Shown: piece after piece, positions 1,521 through 30,099 of the stretch | Layout: the number at the start of each line of letters is the position of its first letter | Position numbering within the stretch: the stretch's first letter is position 1 | NCBI GenBank assembly: GCA_022482495.1 | Contig: JAKVPA010000001.1 | Location: forward strand, 248,001 to 312,000 | DNA: 64,000 nt | Source: Sphaerochaeta sp. | GTDB taxonomy: Bacteria > Spirochaetota > Spirochaetia > Sphaerochaetales > Sphaerochaetaceae | Direction: 5' to 3' | Program-made: the position numbers and the translations under genes | The notes under the pieces: model-generated | Databases searched by the model: none | Told to the model about the DNA's origin: nothing | Seen by the model: the letters and a program-made list of their open reading frames with translations, nothing else

Positions 1521-1939
1521 ACAAAGAATTCCTAAGAACCATCAAGTACACCCTCGTCGCCGCATCGGCAGGGCTGATCCAGGCCGTCACCGACACGATC
1601 TGTTTCCAACTGTTGGGAATGAGCGCATGGAGCAGCTACCTGATCGCCCTGATCCTCTCCGTCATCTGGAACTTCGCCATCAACCGGGCGTACACGTTCC
1701 GCTCCAACGCCAACGTATTGGCCTCGCTGGCATTGGTCGCGTTGTACTACGCCGTCTTCACCCCGTTGTCCACCTGGTGGACAAAATTGTTCGTCGACCA
1801 GTGGGGCTGGAACAACTATCTGGTGCTGGCCGCCACCATGCTGGTCAATTTCGTCACCGAATTCTGCTGGCAACGGCTGGTTATCTACCGGGGCAAGGTG
1901 GACACCAAAGCGGGTGACGAATCTATGAAAAAAGTATGA
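1517..1939 (+). CDS. GtrA-like small membrane protein
   Basis: A 140-residue protein starts at ATG 1517, overlapping the upstream stop by four bases. It has four hydrophobic segments, roughly residues 8-28, 35-55, 68-88 and 98-118, with the WNFAINRAYTFR motif between the second and third that typifies GtrA/DPMS-like proteins. GtrA proteins are thought to move or anchor polyprenyl-linked sugars in glycan modification. Coupling to the upstream sugar isomerase suggests surface-glycan or carbohydrate work, which is inference. The basic tail DTKAGDESMKKV is cytoplasmic in the likely topology. Confidence 0.75.
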   Translation: MNKEFLRTIKYTLVAASAGLIQAVTDTICFQLLGMSAWSSYLIALILSVIWNFAINRAYTFRSNANVLASLALVALYYAVFTPLSTWWTKLFVDQWGWNNYLVLAATMLVNFVTEFCWQRLVIYRGKVDTKAGDESMKKV

Positions 1940-1988
1940 AACAGCCAGTCAACTCTTGTGTCATGGAGCTTTTTCCAGTAGCGTGAAC

Positions 1989-2684
1989 ATGGATATGGCG
2001 CACCTTTTGGTTGTAGAAGATGATGATGATATCGCTACGCTTCTCGCCTATCAGCTGGAGAAGCTCGGGTTCACTGTAAGCCGCGCCCGTGACGGGCAGG
2101 AAGCGGTGGACAATCTTTCCTCCGGATCGTTCGATCTGGTGCTGCTGGACATCATGCTCCCCAAACTGGACGGACTGGAAGTGCTGAAGACGATGCGTTA
2201 CCGACTTGGCCTGACCACTCCGGTGATCGTCGAGAGCGCCAAGGGCGAGGAGGCGGACATCGTCACCGCCCTGGAAATCGGCGCGGATGACTATGTCACC
2301 AAACCGTTCAGCATCAACGTGCTGATGGCCAAGATCAAATCGTTGCTCCGGCGTACCAAGGAACACACCTCGGAAGCAACCCCAGAGACGGTGACCACCC
2401 AGCACTTGCTTTTGGACAGCAGAAGCCACACCTGCACCGTCGATGGCGAACTCGTTCCGTTGACGGCGACGGAGTTCTCAATCCTTTGGACCTTGGCCTC
2501 AGACAGCGGACGGGTGTTTACACGCACCCAGTTGATCTCCGCCACCAAAGGGGACGACTACCCGGTGACGGAACGCTCCATTGACGTGCAAATCGCCACC
2601 ATCCGGCATAAGATCAAGAAAGCAGGTCCGTTTCTCAAGACCGTCTGGGGAGTCGGTTACAAGTATCTGGAGGAGCAGTCATGA
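1989..2684 (+). CDS. phoB: PhoB-type response regulator
   Basis: An OmpR/PhoB-family regulator of 231 residues if ATG 1989 is used (GTG 1983 and ATG 1995 are alternatives). The receiver domain shows the acidic pocket VVEDDDD, the phospho-acceptor aspartate in LVLLDIMLP and the conserved lysine in VTKPFS. The C-terminal winged helix ends with VWGVGYKYL, typical of the family. It overlaps the kinase gene by four bases (ATGA) and faces the pst-phoU operon, so it very probably controls phosphate-starvation genes. The regulatory target sites are likely those before pstS. Confidence 0.9.
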   Translation: MDMAHLLVVEDDDDIATLLAYQLEKLGFTVSRARDGQEAVDNLSSGSFDLVLLDIMLPKLDGLEVLKTMRYRLGLTTPVIVESAKGEEADIVTALEIGADDYVTKPFSINVLMAKIKSLLRRTKEHTSEATPETVTTQHLLLDSRSHTCTVDGELVPLTATEFSILWTLASDSGRVFTRTQLISATKGDDYPVTERSIDVQIATIRHKIKKAGPFLKTVWGVGYKYLEEQS

Positions 2685-4459
2685 AACTGCGGGGCCAGCA
2701 AGCCATCATCGTCGCATCGCTCCTGCTCCTTGCCGGCCTTCTCGCATTCATTACGGCGGACCAATCATTCCGCTATGTCACCGACCGTCTCAGTGAGGAA
2801 AACCTTCACCGCCACAGCGCATACCTGAAAGAAAGCATCGAAGCTTCCAACGCCTGGGATCCCGCGGAACTGAATCGCTATGCGTCATCCCACCAGGTAC
2901 GCCTTACCGTAATCGATCCCGACGGAACCGTACAGTACGACAGTCAGGAAAATCCTCAGGCGATGGACAATCACGCCTACCGCACCGAGGTCAAGGCAGC
3001 ATTGGAGACAGGAAGCGGGGAAGACCGAAGAACCTCCGCCACCAGCGGGAAATCCACCCTGTACCAGGCACAGCTCCTGGCCCTCTCCCCTCCGGTCATC
3101 CTCCGGGTCGGTCTGGAACAACAGAGCGTTTCCGTCTGGAGGCGGGTGTTCGTATCGCGGTTCACCCCGATTCTGCTCGCCGCCCTGATCTTCTCCCTGG
3201 CCGTCTCGTTGATTCTGATGGACGGCATCAGCAAGCCGCTGACCCATATCGCCGAGGTGGCAAAAGCGTACGGAAACGGACAACTGGACCGACGCATTTG
3301 GATCGACGGACCGGATGAGGTGAAGATGGTGGGGTCCACCCTGCAGTCCATGGCGGAACAGCTCTCAACCCAGATGAACCGTCTGGAGACGGACCGCAGC
3401 CGCTTTTCCACCATTCTGGAGACGATGACCGAAGCGGTGATTCTGGTCGATCCGAAGAAACAGGTCATCCTGTCCAACGGAGAGGCGAAACGACGGTTCG
3501 GGACGGGAAAGACGTTGATGGAGATGATTCCTGACTCCGACCTGCTCTCCCTCTGCGGCGACACGCTGGAATCCAACCGGACGGGCAGCTGTACGGTGAA
3601 GAACGAGAAGGCGATCTTCCAGGCGAGCATCGCCCCGATCCACATGGAGGGGCTGGTCACCGGAGCGGTCATCACGCTGTCGGACATCACCAACCTGAAG
3701 CACCTGGAACAGGTACGAAAAGATTTTGTCGCAAACGTCTCCCACGAGCTGAAAAGTCCGCTTACTTCCATCCTGGGATTCTCCGACATCCTTACCTCAA
3801 AGGATCTCAGCGAGGAGGAGCGCATCAAGTTCGCCAGCATCGTCAAGGCGAACAGCGAGCGGATGATGGGCATCATCCAGGATCTGCTCACCCTGGCGTC
3901 GCTGGAACGGGACGAAACGACTATTCCGATGCAACCCTCCCCGCTTGGGGTGATCATCGAAGAGACGCTGACCGGCGCCACGTACAAGGCGGACCGAAAG
4001 TCTATCACGTTGAAAGTGGACAACCCGCTTCCCGCCGATACCCAGGTGTACGGCTCCCAATCGCTGTTGGTCCAGGCGCTCCTCAATCTGGTGATCAACG
4101 CCATCTTGTACTCTCCGGAACACACCACCGTCACGCTACAGGTCAGAAAAGAGGGACGAATGATCTCCTTTGCCATCATCGATCATGGAGTCGGCATCGC
4201 AAAAGAAGACCAGGAACGGATTTTCGAACGGTTCTACCGGGTGGACAAAGCAAGGTCCCGTTCCGTCGGAGGAACGGGACTGGGATTGTCCATCGTGCGC
4301 CACGTGGCGATGATCCACAAAGGAACGGTGACGGTCCAGAGCAAGCTCGGTGAGGGCTCCACCTTCACGTTCACCATCCCGTTGGAAGGGAAGATCGGGG
4401 AACTGCAGGAGAAAAGCGACCGGATGCTGGAGCCCCGCTTCAGTTCAGGTCGGGCTTGA
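2681..4459 (+). CDS. phoR: PhoR-type sensor histidine kinase
   Basis: A 592-residue membrane kinase. Transmembrane helix 1 is about residues 8-28, followed by an extracytoplasmic sensor region of about 130 residues, helix 2 near 160-182, a HAMP linker (GISKPLTHIAEVAKAYGNG), and a PAS domain around 240-345. The HisKA domain has the phospho-accepting histidine in VSHELKSPL near residue 354. The ATPase shows the N box NLVINAI, DHGVGI and GGTGLGLSI. It is translationally coupled to phoB. Its 3' end overlaps the convergent phoU gene by 20 bases. Confidence 0.92.
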   Translation: MKLRGQQAIIVASLLLLAGLLAFITADQSFRYVTDRLSEENLHRHSAYLKESIEASNAWDPAELNRYASSHQVRLTVIDPDGTVQYDSQENPQAMDNHAYRTEVKAALETGSGEDRRTSATSGKSTLYQAQLLALSPPVILRVGLEQQSVSVWRRVFVSRFTPILLAALIFSLAVSLILMDGISKPLTHIAEVAKAYGNGQLDRRIWIDGPDEVKMVGSTLQSMAEQLSTQMNRLETDRSRFSTILETMTEAVILVDPKKQVILSNGEAKRRFGTGKTLMEMIPDSDLLSLCGDTLESNRTGSCTVKNEKAIFQASIAPIHMEGLVTGAVITLSDITNLKHLEQVRKDFVANVSHELKSPLTSILGFSDILTSKDLSEEERIKFASIVKANSERMMGIIQDLLTLASLERDETTIPMQPSPLGVIIEETLTGATYKADRKSITLKVDNPLPADTQVYGSQSLLVQALLNLVINAILYSPEHTTVTLQVRKEGRMISFAIIDHGVGIAKEDQERIFERFYRVDKARSRSVGGTGLGLSIVRHVAMIHKGTVTVQSKLGEGSTFTFTIPLEGKIGELQEKSDRMLEPRFSSGRA

Positions 4460-5099
4460 CGCCCTCGGCCATATAGACGATCCAGGCACAGATATTGGTG
4501 ACGTGGTCCCCAAAGCGTTCCAGTTCTTTGGACACGTAGTGGTAATCGAACAGGTTTTCCCGCTCCGCCACATCCGCGGCGTCCACGGCGATGATCATCT
4601 TCCCCGCCTTGGCGTTCAGCCGGTCCACCTCATCGTCCATCTTGGCGATCTCCCTGGCTTTCTGGGAATCCATTCTTACCAACGCGTCGATCACCTCGGC
4701 GGCCATGTGATGGTCCGCCTCAGCCATCTCGGCGATCACCGCGGCGATATCCTGGTGTTTCCTCGGCGTCATCGGCATGACGGCCAGTGCGGCCAGATGG
4801 CAGGCATGGTCACCCATCCGTTCCAGGCTGGTGACGATCTTCATGCCGGCGATCACCTGGCGCATGTACTGGCCGTACGGCGCTTCGCTGATCAGAATCC
4901 GCACGCCGTCGCTTTCGATCAAATCGCGCATCTGGTCGATGAAGTAATCATCTCCCTTGACCTTTTCGGACAGTTTGACGTCTTCCTTTTCGAACGCTTC
5001 CCGGGCAAGCGCGATGGATTCCTCCACCCTGCTTGCCATCTGTACCAGCAGTTCATGGTAGAACTGCAGTTTGTCATCCAATTGATATTTCTTTTCCAT
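4440..5099 (-). CDS. phoU: Phosphate transport regulator PhoU
   Basis: A 219-residue all-helical protein with two PhoU repeats, each marked by a conserved metal-binding helix: LERMGDHACHLAA near residue 90 and LERFGDHVTNICAW near 190. PhoU links PstSCAB to the PhoR kinase, restraining the regulon when phosphate is plentiful. It is the last gene of the pstSCAB-phoU operon, 15 bases after pstB, with a purine-rich ribosome site (GAAAGGGGGACGG). Its C-terminal codons overlap the end of phoR on the other strand. Confidence 0.93.
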   Translation of the reverse strand: MEKKYQLDDKLQFYHELLVQMASRVEESIALAREAFEKEDVKLSEKVKGDDYFIDQMRDLIESDGVRILISEAPYGQYMRQVIAGMKIVTSLERMGDHACHLAALAVMPMTPRKHQDIAAVIAEMAEADHHMAAEVIDALVRMDSQKAREIAKMDDEVDRLNAKAGKMIIAVDAADVAERENLFDYHYVSKELERFGDHVTNICAWIVYMAEGVKPDLN

Positions 5100-27725: not shown

Positions 27726-28610
27726 TCACTTTCCGATCTTCGTTCCCGAGACTTTGGCGTAATACTTCGCCAGAGCGCTGTGGTCGTCCGAACCGCATCC
27801 GTCGGCGTGCAGCGTCTCAAACATCTCCTGGACTTCCGCAGTCAAGGGAAGCGGAGATCCCACCTCGTGTCCGGTGGACAAGGCGTTGTTCAGGTCCTTG
27901 ATGTGCAGGTCGATGCGGAATCCCGGCTTGAAGTCGGAAGCCATCATCATCGGTACCTTGGCGTTCATCACCGTGCTGCCGGCCAGCCCGCCTTTGATCG
28001 CCTGGAACACCAGGTCGGGATCCAGCCCCGCCTTCTTCACCATGGTGAACGCCTCGGCGCAGGCCGCGATGTTCACCGCCACGATGATCTGGTTGGCAAG
28101 CTTCGTCGTGTTTCCCGCTCCGATCGAACCGCAATACACCGCGGTCGCGCCCATCTGCAGCAGGAGCGGCTTGTACTCATCATACAGCGCCTTCTCGCCG
28201 CCCACCATGATGGCCAGCGTCCCATCTACCGCTTTTGGCTCGCCACCGGAAACCGGGGCGTCCAGCATCTTCACGCCCTTCTGGGCGCAAGCCGCACACA
28301 CCTTCTGGCTGGCCGCAGGCGCGATGGAACTCATGTCGATCAATACAGAACCGGATTTGGCGTGCTCCAGAAGACCATCCTTGCCCAACACCACCGCCTC
28401 GACCTGCGGAGAATTGGGAAGCATCGTGATGATCACCGGGCATTTCTCCACGATGTCAGCGTTGCTGGCACCTTCCTTCGCCCCATCCTTGGTCACCGCT
28501 TCGATGTTTTCCCTTCTCAGGTCATACACCCACACTTCGTTGCCGTGTTTCAGCAAATTGCGGACCATGGGCTTCCCCATGACTCCAAGACCGATAAACG
28601 CAATCTTCAT
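27726..28610 (-). CDS. garR: Tartronate semialdehyde reductase (2-hydroxy-3-oxopropionate reductase)
   Basis: A 294-residue beta-hydroxyacid dehydrogenase. The NAD(P) site is IGLGVMGKPM at the N terminus, the substrate-binding segment DAPVSGGEPKA is at about 118, and the catalytic lysine is in GNTTKLANQ near 170. It reduces tartronate semialdehyde to glycerate, the substrate of GarK. The start has GGAGGAGCAAC upstream. Ten bases separate it from the aldolase gene. An IS110-family element lies directly upstream, so its original link to the rest of the operon is broken. Confidence 0.88.
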   Translation of the reverse strand: MKIAFIGLGVMGKPMVRNLLKHGNEVWVYDLRRENIEAVTKDGAKEGASNADIVEKCPVIITMLPNSPQVEAVVLGKDGLLEHAKSGSVLIDMSSIAPAASQKVCAACAQKGVKMLDAPVSGGEPKAVDGTLAIMVGGEKALYDEYKPLLLQMGATAVYCGSIGAGNTTKLANQIIVAVNIAACAEAFTMVKKAGLDPDLVFQAIKGGLAGSTVMNAKVPMMMASDFKPGFRIDLHIKDLNNALSTGHEVGSPLPLTAEVQEMFETLHADGCGSDDHSALAKYYAKVSGTKIGK

Positions 28611-28689
28611 GTTGCTCCTCCTATAAAAAGTCAACAGTAAAGTTAGGAAACTGCTAACCTTTGTTTGTTTTACTATAGGAGCTGTCAAG

Positions 28690-29823
28690 TCAAGCCCCTA
28701 TGACCTCCTCGACGGTGAACAGACACTTGTCCCTCACCATCAAGGCTGGATTGAACGGTTCCCTGTTGTGGAGCATGGCAAAGATGATTCTCGCCAATTT
28801 CCTGGTCGTTGCAATGATTGACTTGCCGGAACCCTTGCCCGTCTTCATTGCCCGGTAATCGGTCATCAGCCTCCATTCACCGGTTATCTTGGAGAGCCGT
28901 ATCATGCCCATTGTGGCCTGCACGAGTGCTGTTCTCAGCTCCTGCGGGCCGTGCTTGGTTATCCTGCCCATGTGCACCGTCTCGTTGGAGTTGTGCACCG
29001 AGGGCACGATGCCCACGTACGAGGCGAACCGCTTGAAATCCCCGCAGAACCTCTTGTCCAGGTCCTTGGTGTAGGCGGCGATTGCGCTGGCCGTCAGGAA
29101 CCCGACACCCGGGATGGTCATCAGCAGCTGCACATCCTCGTCGTCCCTGGTCATCTCCCGAAGGCGCTTCTCCAGGACCTTGATTTGCTCCTGCACACCT
29201 TCTATAATGCCAAGTATCACCTCGAGTGATGCGGCGGCCTCTGTAAAACCTTGATCCGCGAGATCTTTAACCAGGGCCTGCCGCTTTTTATTGCTCTGCA
29301 GCTGGGCTGCCTTGGTCGTGATCCCGTAGCCGAGCAGCATCCCGTGGATCTGGTTCTTCATCTTCACCGTGCTGCTCACCAAAAGGCTCCTGCACTTGAT
29401 CATCCTCCTGAGCTCCTCGCTGCTCTGGTCCGCCAGGTGGCTTTCCGGCAGCATGTCCTTGCCCAGGTAGTAGGCCAGCGTTGCAGCATCCCCTCTGTCG
29501 TTCTTCTTGGTGCTCTGGCTGATCACCTTGAACTTGTTGGTGTTCACCACAACCACGGAGAACCCCTCGCCTTCCATCCGGTTCTTGAAGTACCGTGCAT
29601 TGCCGGTGGTCTCCACCGCCATGGCGACCGAGCATCCCCGCTCGTCCTCCCACTCATGCATCCTCTGCACAAATGCCTGGTAGCCCTCCGTCGTGGTCCG
29701 GTACATCCCTTCCTGCAACAGCTCCCCGTCCTCTCCCATCACACAGATGGTGAGCTGGCTCTTGTGCAGGTCGACCCCTACGCTCAACTGTTCAATCTTC
29801 TCTTCTCGCTGCTTGTTGCCCAT
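28690..29823 (-). CDS. IS110-family transposase/recombinase
   Basis: A 377-residue DEDD recombinase from ATG 29823 with GGAGG seven bases upstream. The RuvC-like N-terminal domain has acidic residues in SVGVDLHKSQ, AVETTGNARYF and KKNDRGDAATLA. A coiled-coil segment follows around residues 165-210. The C-terminal Transposase_20 domain has the helix-hairpin TIPGVGFLTASAI and SNETVHMGRITKHG, the region with the catalytic serine. It appears intact. Members use a bridge RNA from their noncoding end to choose target and donor sites. Confidence 0.93.
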   Translation of the reverse strand: MGNKQREEKIEQLSVGVDLHKSQLTICVMGEDGELLQEGMYRTTTEGYQAFVQRMHEWEDERGCSVAMAVETTGNARYFKNRMEGEGFSVVVVNTNKFKVISQSTKKNDRGDAATLAYYLGKDMLPESHLADQSSEELRRMIKCRSLLVSSTVKMKNQIHGMLLGYGITTKAAQLQSNKKRQALVKDLADQGFTEAAASLEVILGIIEGVQEQIKVLEKRLREMTRDDEDVQLLMTIPGVGFLTASAIAAYTKDLDKRFCGDFKRFASYVGIVPSVHNSNETVHMGRITKHGPQELRTALVQATMGMIRLSKITGEWRLMTDYRAMKTGKGSGKSIIATTRKLARIIFAMLHNREPFNPALMVRDKCLFTVEEVIGA

Positions 29824-29997
29824 CTCAAGGCCTCCTTGTGCTTTGGTCGGCAAGACAGCTTCCGTTCGGTGATTCCGTCCAATCTCCTATCCGGCCTATC
29901 CGCCATCGCTGACGGTGACCATTGAATGATTCGGTACAAACTCTTCATTCTCCTAATCGGCCTCTTACGACCATCAAACATGTCGAACTTGCACCTA

Positions 29998-30045
29998 CTC
30001 TGTCTTCCAACCTTGTATCTATAATGATACACCCTTCAGACAGAG
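29998..30045 (-). ncRNA. Candidate bridge RNA stem-loop of the IS110 element
   Basis: An outer stem pairs CTCTGTCT (29998-30005) with AGACAGAG (30038-30045). An inner stem pairs GTATC (30015-30019) with GATAC (30026-30030). Between the two stems are unpaired strands of seven and nine bases, forming an internal loop. This resembles the guide loops of IS110-group bridge RNAs, which also lie in the 5' noncoding end of the element. It is 175-220 bases upstream of the transposase start. RNA expression and full length are unknown; positions may be off by one. Confidence 0.5.
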
Positions 30046-30099
30046 CCTCAGTAACCACCTACTGACTTTTTATCATTCCTCCTAACCAAATAGGTTTCA

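What the first reader, a model, noticed from the sequence alone, without database searches (positions are those of the whole stretch)
29824..30070. Candidate bridge RNA in the 5' noncoding end of an IS110-family element
The recombinase is intact, and the noncoding stretch upstream holds a two-level hairpin with an internal loop: CTCTGTCT/AGACAGAG outside and GTATC/GATAC inside. IS110-group elements encode a guide RNA here whose internal loops specify target and donor. If the loop bases match the insertion junction, this would define a new programmable element.
Basis: partly seen in the sequence, partly recalled or inferred. Interest (0 to 1): 0.65.

Follow-up and report, generated by a model that had tools for sequence, protein, structure and literature searches.

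The report
Jumping gene aimed at gene starts
A small mobile DNA element in spirochaete bacteria carries a guide RNA whose two guide segments match the ribosome-binding site and the start codon of genes, which would explain why its copies sit exactly at gene starts and leave a ribosome-binding site in front of the gene.

Summary
Two identical copies fix the element at window 28618-30083 (minus strand). Its target loop lies at 29933-29995: one strand reads CAU+NNN, the other NNN+GGAG. In 43 of 44 right junctions (21 lineages) the element sits inside GGAG, 5-7 nt before an ATG; in the window 25 of 180 AGGAG sites have such an ATG. The left guide matches the three target bases before GGAG in 40, 37 and 32 of 42 copies, far above guides swapped between lineages (p=2e-5), with no signal further out. 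The right guide matches the three bases before ATG (p=6e-5), but only when anchored on the ATG. So this RNA appears to read a Shine-Dalgarno sequence plus a start codon across a flexible gap. The donor loop covaries with the element's own ends. Layout is mixed: RNA upstream (IS110-like), subterminal repeats and guide order IS1111-like. IS900 was already known to insert at translation starts, so the target type is not new; a guide RNA explaining it was not found in the held literature. No experiment was possible.

The parts
28618..30083 (-). whole element, counted with AGGAG at both ends (one GGAG belongs to the target)
   Evidence: identical 1,466-bp stretch shared with a second copy at G000:C1:344679-346144; flanks differ on both sides
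28690..29823 (-). IS110-family DEDD recombinase, 377 aa, intact
   Evidence: NCBIfam NF033542 226.7 bits, cut-off 140
29824..29837 (-). recombinase's own Shine-Dalgarno AAGGAGG and spacer
   Evidence: sequence
30072..30083 (-). left end AGGAGGAATGAT; GAATGAT is the donor stretch matched by the RNA's AAUCAUUC
30063..30073 (-). left subterminal inverted repeat ATAAAAAGTCA
   Evidence: 11-bp inverted match to the right end
28618..28634 (-). right end TTGACTTTTTATAGGAG: right subterminal repeat TGACTTTTTAT (28623-28633) plus the GGAG in front of the downstream gene
   Evidence: folds here and as a stem in relatives; loops do not match targets
29974..29982 (-). right target guide CAUGUUUGA (CAU complements ATG, next bases complement the nt before ATG)
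   Evidence: CAU in 47 of 47 loci with the RNA; n1-n3 covary with targets, p=0.00006
29958..29973 (-). target-loop hairpin UGGUC...GGCCG
   Evidence: 4 of 5 pairs with changes on both sides
29950..29956 (-). left target guide UUAGGAG (same sense as the Shine-Dalgarno, would pair the opposite strand)
   Evidence: covaries with 3 target bases before GGAG, p=0.00002
29924..29931 (-). donor guide, 5' strand AAUCAUUC (reverse complement of the left-end stretch GAATGAT)
29892..29921 (-). donor-loop hairpin UGGUC...GGCCG
   Evidence: 4 of 5 pairs with changes on both sides
29884..29890 (-). donor guide, 3' strand AUAGGAG (same as the right end TATAGGAG)
   Evidence: last 7 nt equal the right end in 19 of 20 lineages with a right end in the listing
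28608..28610 (-). start codon of the target gene (2-hydroxy-3-oxopropionate reductase), 7 nt after the restored AGGAG

Best explanation
This is an IS110-family element whose upstream noncoding end encodes a bridge RNA programmed for translation-start sites. In the target loop the 5' strand (CAU plus three variable bases) pairs with NNN-ATG on the coding strand, and the 3' strand (three variable bases plus GGAG) pairs with the strand opposite NNN-GGAG, the Shine-Dalgarno sequence. The two half-sites are read across a flexible 5-7 nt gap. In the donor loop, AUCAUUC and AUAGGAG pair in the same way with the abutted ends of the circular element. Recombination within GGAG inserts the element with its recombinase co-directional with the target gene, and the right end supplies GGAG again, so the gene keeps a Shine-Dalgarno. 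Shown by sequence: ends, insertion sites, guide/target and guide/donor covariation, RNA stems. Inferred: that the RNA is made and bound by the recombinase, that pairing drives insertion, the circular intermediate and its junction promoter (TTGACT-17-TAAAAA), and that the downstream gene stays translated.
For: Ends from two identical copies. Right junctions: ATG 5-7 nt after GGAG in 43 of 44 (16 at 5, 20 at 6, 7 at 7), against 61 of 761 GGAG and 25 of 180 AGGAG sites in the window; 40 of 43 of these ATGs open 70 codons or more within the DNA held. Left guide: matches at the three bases before GGAG in 40, 37 and 32 of 42 copies, 10 and 7 of 42 at the next two; swapped guides p=0.00002 with merged lineages and again in a stricter set of 16 lineages. 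Right guide: CAU in 47 of 47 loci with the RNA (pattern allowing 2 mismatches); n1-n3 covary with the bases before ATG, p=0.00006, 0.0004 in the strict set. Donor: complement of a left-end 5-mer inside the RNA in 13 of 21 lineages vs 4.6 expected from swaps, p=6e-5; RNAalifold by itself paired the left-end DNA columns with the donor guide, 95.5% of cells paired, 0 of 500 shuffles reach the covariation score. RNA stems: 95.2% of 418 cells paired, 0 of 500 shuffles reach the covariation score. Related unoccupied site: G100 has the same upstream gene end and a single TAGGAG before its reductase homologue.
Against: No expression, binding or transposition data. Only 26 of 42 copies match all seven left-guide bases; at n1-n3 8 of 43 match fully and 2 match none. 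One of 44 junctions has no ATG (L013), and G107's L056, outside the 44, has it at 12 nt unless a repeated GGAG is used. Two shift controls were not flat: left guide shift +3 p=0.03, right guide shift -2 p=0.02. Guides and targets were located with patterns fitted on this family, and relatives with other ends (L061-L066, L068-L070) were left out. The slid-register control leans towards a structure derived from the same alignment. Fixed-geometry pairing of the right guide finds no clear support, unlike IS621.
Confidence: 0.85

Rival explanations
1. No start-site guide: the element recombines wherever GGAG matches its own end, and only insertions at Shine-Dalgarno sites survive because they spare coding sequence and restore the site.
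For: The right end carries GGAG, so insertion at a Shine-Dalgarno is nearly silent; IS900 is reported to lie rarely inside coding sequence (PMC8141618 abstract). GGAG itself never varies, so it gives no covariation.
Against: Left guide covaries with three bases upstream of GGAG that come from the target; right guide covaries with bases before ATG and its CAU does not vary. Selection may still sharpen the pattern.
Confidence: 0.08
2. One reading: the two internal-loop strands of the CTCTGTCT hairpin (GAAGGGU, AAGGUUGGA) are the guides.
For: The hairpin with an internal loop is real in the elements closest to this one.
Against: Loops match junctions no better than shuffles (p=0.59, 0.43) and are absent in many relatives with the same target type.
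Confidence: 0.02
3. The structured leader is only a cis-acting control region of the recombinase mRNA; target choice is made by the protein.
For: The leader directly precedes the recombinase start and would be transcribed with it (sequence).
Against: Covariation with both target and donor DNA and a layout like that of proven bridge/seek RNAs (PMC11208160, PMC11187229).
Confidence: 0.04

Closest known systems
IS621 and IS110-group bridge RNA (Durrant et al. 2024, PMC11208160; sections 5, 6, 7, 12 and part of the extended-data legends read)
   Same: DEDD recombinase with C-terminal serine domain, RNA in the upstream noncoding end, two loops matching target and donor, promoter formed at the circle junction (here by sequence only)
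   Different: In IS621 the 5' strand of each loop pairs with the bottom strand and the 3' strand with the top; here the order is reversed relative to the recombinase strand. The target half-sites are separated by a variable gap and no core read by both guides was seen. Serine followed by N (or D), not G.
IS1111-group seekRNA (Siddiquee et al. 2024, PMC11187229; abstract and sections 6, 12, 13 read, other passages searched)
   Same: Subterminal inverted repeats (6-11 bp exact here) and top-strand complement before bottom-strand match
   Different: RNA is upstream of the recombinase, open frames are about 375-430 aa in most relatives against 330-350 in that paper, targets are translation starts
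IS900 of Mycobacterium avium paratuberculosis (motif CATGNNNNNNTCTCCTT in PMC8141618, passages read; Doran et al. 1997 seen only as a title in its reference list)
   Same: IS110 family, target is a start codon plus Shine-Dalgarno
   Different: If that motif is printed in the transposase's orientation, IS900 lies antiparallel to the target gene, while here the two are co-directional (not verified for IS900). No guide RNA for IS900 was found in the held library (0 papers each). IS900's sequence was not examined here.

Membership tests
IS110 family | DEDD RuvC-like domain PF01548 and C-terminal PF02371 with conserved serine | tested here: met
   serine followed by N (D in G454), not G
IS110 family | related to a solved bridge recombinase | tested here: met
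   ISCro4 9t56 E 3.7e-17, IS621 8wt6 E 1.2e-15, C-terminal region
IS110 bridge-RNA elements | structured RNA in the noncoding end with guides that covary with target and donor | tested here: met
IS110 bridge-RNA elements | RNA expressed and bound by the recombinase; RNA-dependent recombination | not testable with these tools
   needs bench work
IS110 group (as opposed to IS1111) | noncoding RNA upstream of the recombinase | tested here: met
IS110 group (as opposed to IS1111) | bottom-strand match precedes top-strand complement in the RNA; subterminal repeats absent or short and imperfect | tested here: not met
   order reversed; subterminal repeats present
IS1111 group | subterminal inverted repeats of 7-17 bp | tested here: met
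   7-11 bp exact in 20 of 22 lineages with a right end, 6 bp in two; A/T-rich, so chance is not negligible for the shortest
IS1111 group | RNA downstream of the recombinase | tested here: not met
   upstream in all 23 lineages used
IS900-like (translation-start targeting) | insertion at Shine-Dalgarno plus start codon | tested here: met
   43 of 44 right junctions
IS900-like (translation-start targeting) | common descent and same orientation as IS900 | not tested

The most novel reading that the evidence does not exclude
A bridge RNA can read a two-part target across a gap of variable length, anchored on the start codon, so one guide set fits many genes of a genome; the element thereby makes gene starts a renewable landing pad, leaves the gene its Shine-Dalgarno, and places its recombinase and RNA in the host gene's transcript. 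Short derivatives of about 157 bp carrying only the ends spread the same portable Shine-Dalgarno in Treponema-like genomes.
Probability: 0.5. Interest if true: 0.8.

Novelty: new variant of a known kind. Interest (0 to 1): 0.66.

Why it matters
It gives a guide-RNA explanation for translation-start targeting, a behaviour reported for IS900 since 1997, and offers natural bridge RNAs whose target is a function (where translation begins) rather than one locus. Gapped, start-codon-anchored reading would extend what bridge RNAs are known to do, and the mixed IS110/IS1111 layout bears on how the two groups are related. It is directly testable in E. coli.

Tried and rejected
Fixed-distance pairing of the right guide: not supported. 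Rfam: nothing. Viral contigs: no encoded relative; four contigs hold the right-end motif and were not read. Plasmids: two records, Thiospirochaeta perfilievii at 51% and Tardibacter chloracetimidivorans at 35% identity. Relatives mostly of genus g21 (L061-L066, L068-L070) carry related RNAs, some downstream of the recombinase, with other end sequences; ends not resolved, left out of all counts. An internal stem GAAUGA/UCAUUC next to the left guide was considered and dropped, because UCAUUC follows the left-end DNA instead. A later set of right-end motifs gave only one new guide (G143), so it could not serve as an independent test of guides. No covariance model, structure prediction or tree was made. 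Rows dropped before counts: G107 (3 right ends, no RNA); L012 and L015, judged duplicates of L054 and L055; G112; G112, G281, G400b, G404; one junction without ATG (L013) in ATG-anchored tests.

Full report
Where it is. The window is G000:C1:248001-312000 of a 2.25-Mb draft genome. A DNA search of that genome finds the stretch twice. Aligning both copies gives an identical 1,466-bp segment, window 28618-30083 on the minus strand, with different flanks.

The protein. The 377-aa product has both IS110 domains, matches NCBI's RNA-guided IS110 transposase model, resembles ISCro4 and IS621 in its C-terminal part, and keeps D, E, DxxD and S in 21 aligned sequences, the serine followed by N or D rather than G.

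Insertion sites. In G000 (2 copies), G110 (3), G112, G092 and G107 (3 right ends), the right end finishes in GGAG and an ATG follows within a few bases; the seven left ends seen read AGGAGG. Relatives at 45-64% identity behave alike. Over 44 right junctions from 21 lineages, ATG follows GGAG after 5, 6 or 7 nt in 16, 20 and 7 cases; one has none. In the window only 61 of 761 GGAG sites and 25 of 180 AGGAG sites have ATG at that distance (binomial P about 5e-36 at the AGGAG rate, which ignores relatedness). Of the 43 ATGs, 40 open at least 70 codons; three open 39, 14 and 3. The target in this window is a 2-hydroxy-3-oxopropionate reductase gene; the gene on the other side matches glucarate dehydratase below that model's cut-off. 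In G100 the same upstream gene end is followed by one TAGGAG and the reductase homologue, without the element; G082 and G083 have AGGAAGGAG before their homologues. The base before GGAG differs between the left (target) and right (donor) side in 14 of 41 copies, so exchange lies within GGAG.

The RNA. The leader folds with z -5.9. A 22-sequence alignment A1 gives a consensus with a target module and a donor module. For the three helices, 95.2% of 418 cells pair, 14 of 19 pairs show changes on both sides, and 0 of 500 shuffles reach the covariation score.

Target guides. The 3' strand of the target loop is NNNGGAG. Against the DNA left of the insertion, the three variable bases match in 40, 37 and 32 of 42 copies, the next two in 10 and 7. 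Swapping guides between lineages gives p=0.00002 for the three together with G000 and G110 merged and G112 dropped (19 lineages), and the same with 16 lineages after dropping near-duplicates and G281, where some left flanks look like a neighbouring miniature element's end. The 5' strand reads UUCGNCAU or close to it; CAU is there in 47 of 47 loci that have the RNA. The next three bases match the three before ATG in 26, 25 and 21 of 42 copies, p=0.00006 (18 lineages), p=0.0004 in the strict set. At fixed distances from GGAG no assumed spacer gives a consistent signal (best single position p=0.014). The best single case is G000's second copy: guide CAUGUUUGA and target TCAAACATG. Shift controls are clearly weaker, two reaching p 0.02-0.03.

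Donor guides. The complement of five left-end bases occurs in the RNA in 13 of 21 lineages against 4.6 expected from swaps (p=6e-5), and the donor 3' strand equals the last seven right-end bases in 19 of 20 lineages, including the A-to-G change shared by guide and end in Treponema-like elements. Five DNA-RNA columns pair in 95.5% of cells; 0 of 500 shuffles reach the score.

Layout. The ends carry 6-11 bp subterminal inverted repeats, and a TTGAC(T/C)-17-TAAAA(A/T/G) pair would form at the circle junction in all 22 lineages with a right end. The RNA lies upstream as in the IS110 group, but repeats and guide order are those given for IS1111 (PMC11187229). That paper itself reports a few exceptions in the position of the noncoding region.

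Literature. IS900's published motif CATGNNNNNNTCTCCTT (PMC8141618) is a start codon plus Shine-Dalgarno read on the other strand, and the 1997 title by Doran et al. says it targets translation initiation signals (title only). Searches for Shine-Dalgarno, ribosome binding site or start codon with IS110 or bridge RNA and IS900 with translation initiation, bridge RNA or seekRNA showed no guide RNA for such a target; passages of PMC7823733, PMC3196728 and PMC7288454 were checked, the other listed papers only as listings. The library lacks most subscription papers and holds no bioRxiv preprints.

Spread. The right-end motif TTGACTTTTTATRGGAG occurs in 48 of 394 sampled genomes of the class, with its reversed control nearly absent. 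Among 80 further right junctions, 59 have ATG at 5-7 nt, against 16 of 308 [AG]GGAG sites in loci L150-L209. Many are not full elements: 16 short left-right pairs of 150-291 bp were found, and others look like right-end remnants.

Noticed in passing
L153, L155, L160, L178, L180, L184 and others: Miniature elements of about 157 bp with the family's left and right ends and internal hairpins, most of them just upstream of start codons, in Treponema-like genomes, several per genome.
   Followed up: partly
L116, L119, L120, L124, L137: Solo right ends with at most the last codons of the recombinase remain, most of them in front of an ATG; possibly relics or kept ribosome-binding sites.
   Followed up: partly
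L061-L065, L069, L070: Related elements carry similar RNAs with a TTGGAG segment; in some the RNA is downstream of the recombinase, and several right flanks read ATATAGGAAG followed by the ATG of similar signal-peptide genes.
   Followed up: no
L054 about 1597-4687: The G112 copy is interrupted inside the recombinase gene by about 3.1 kb of other DNA.
   Followed up: no
L079: In G281 a second left-end motif lies 165 bp upstream of the element, so an element seems to have inserted at the right end of a miniature element.
   Followed up: partly
G000:C2:176951-177856, C5:84802-85707, C6 and C4: The genome holds other, distant IS110-type genes, one present as two copies; their RNAs were not examined.
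   Followed up: no
window 29824-29837: The recombinase's own start (AAGGAGG-N7-ATG) resembles the target; self-insertion was not looked for.
   Followed up: no
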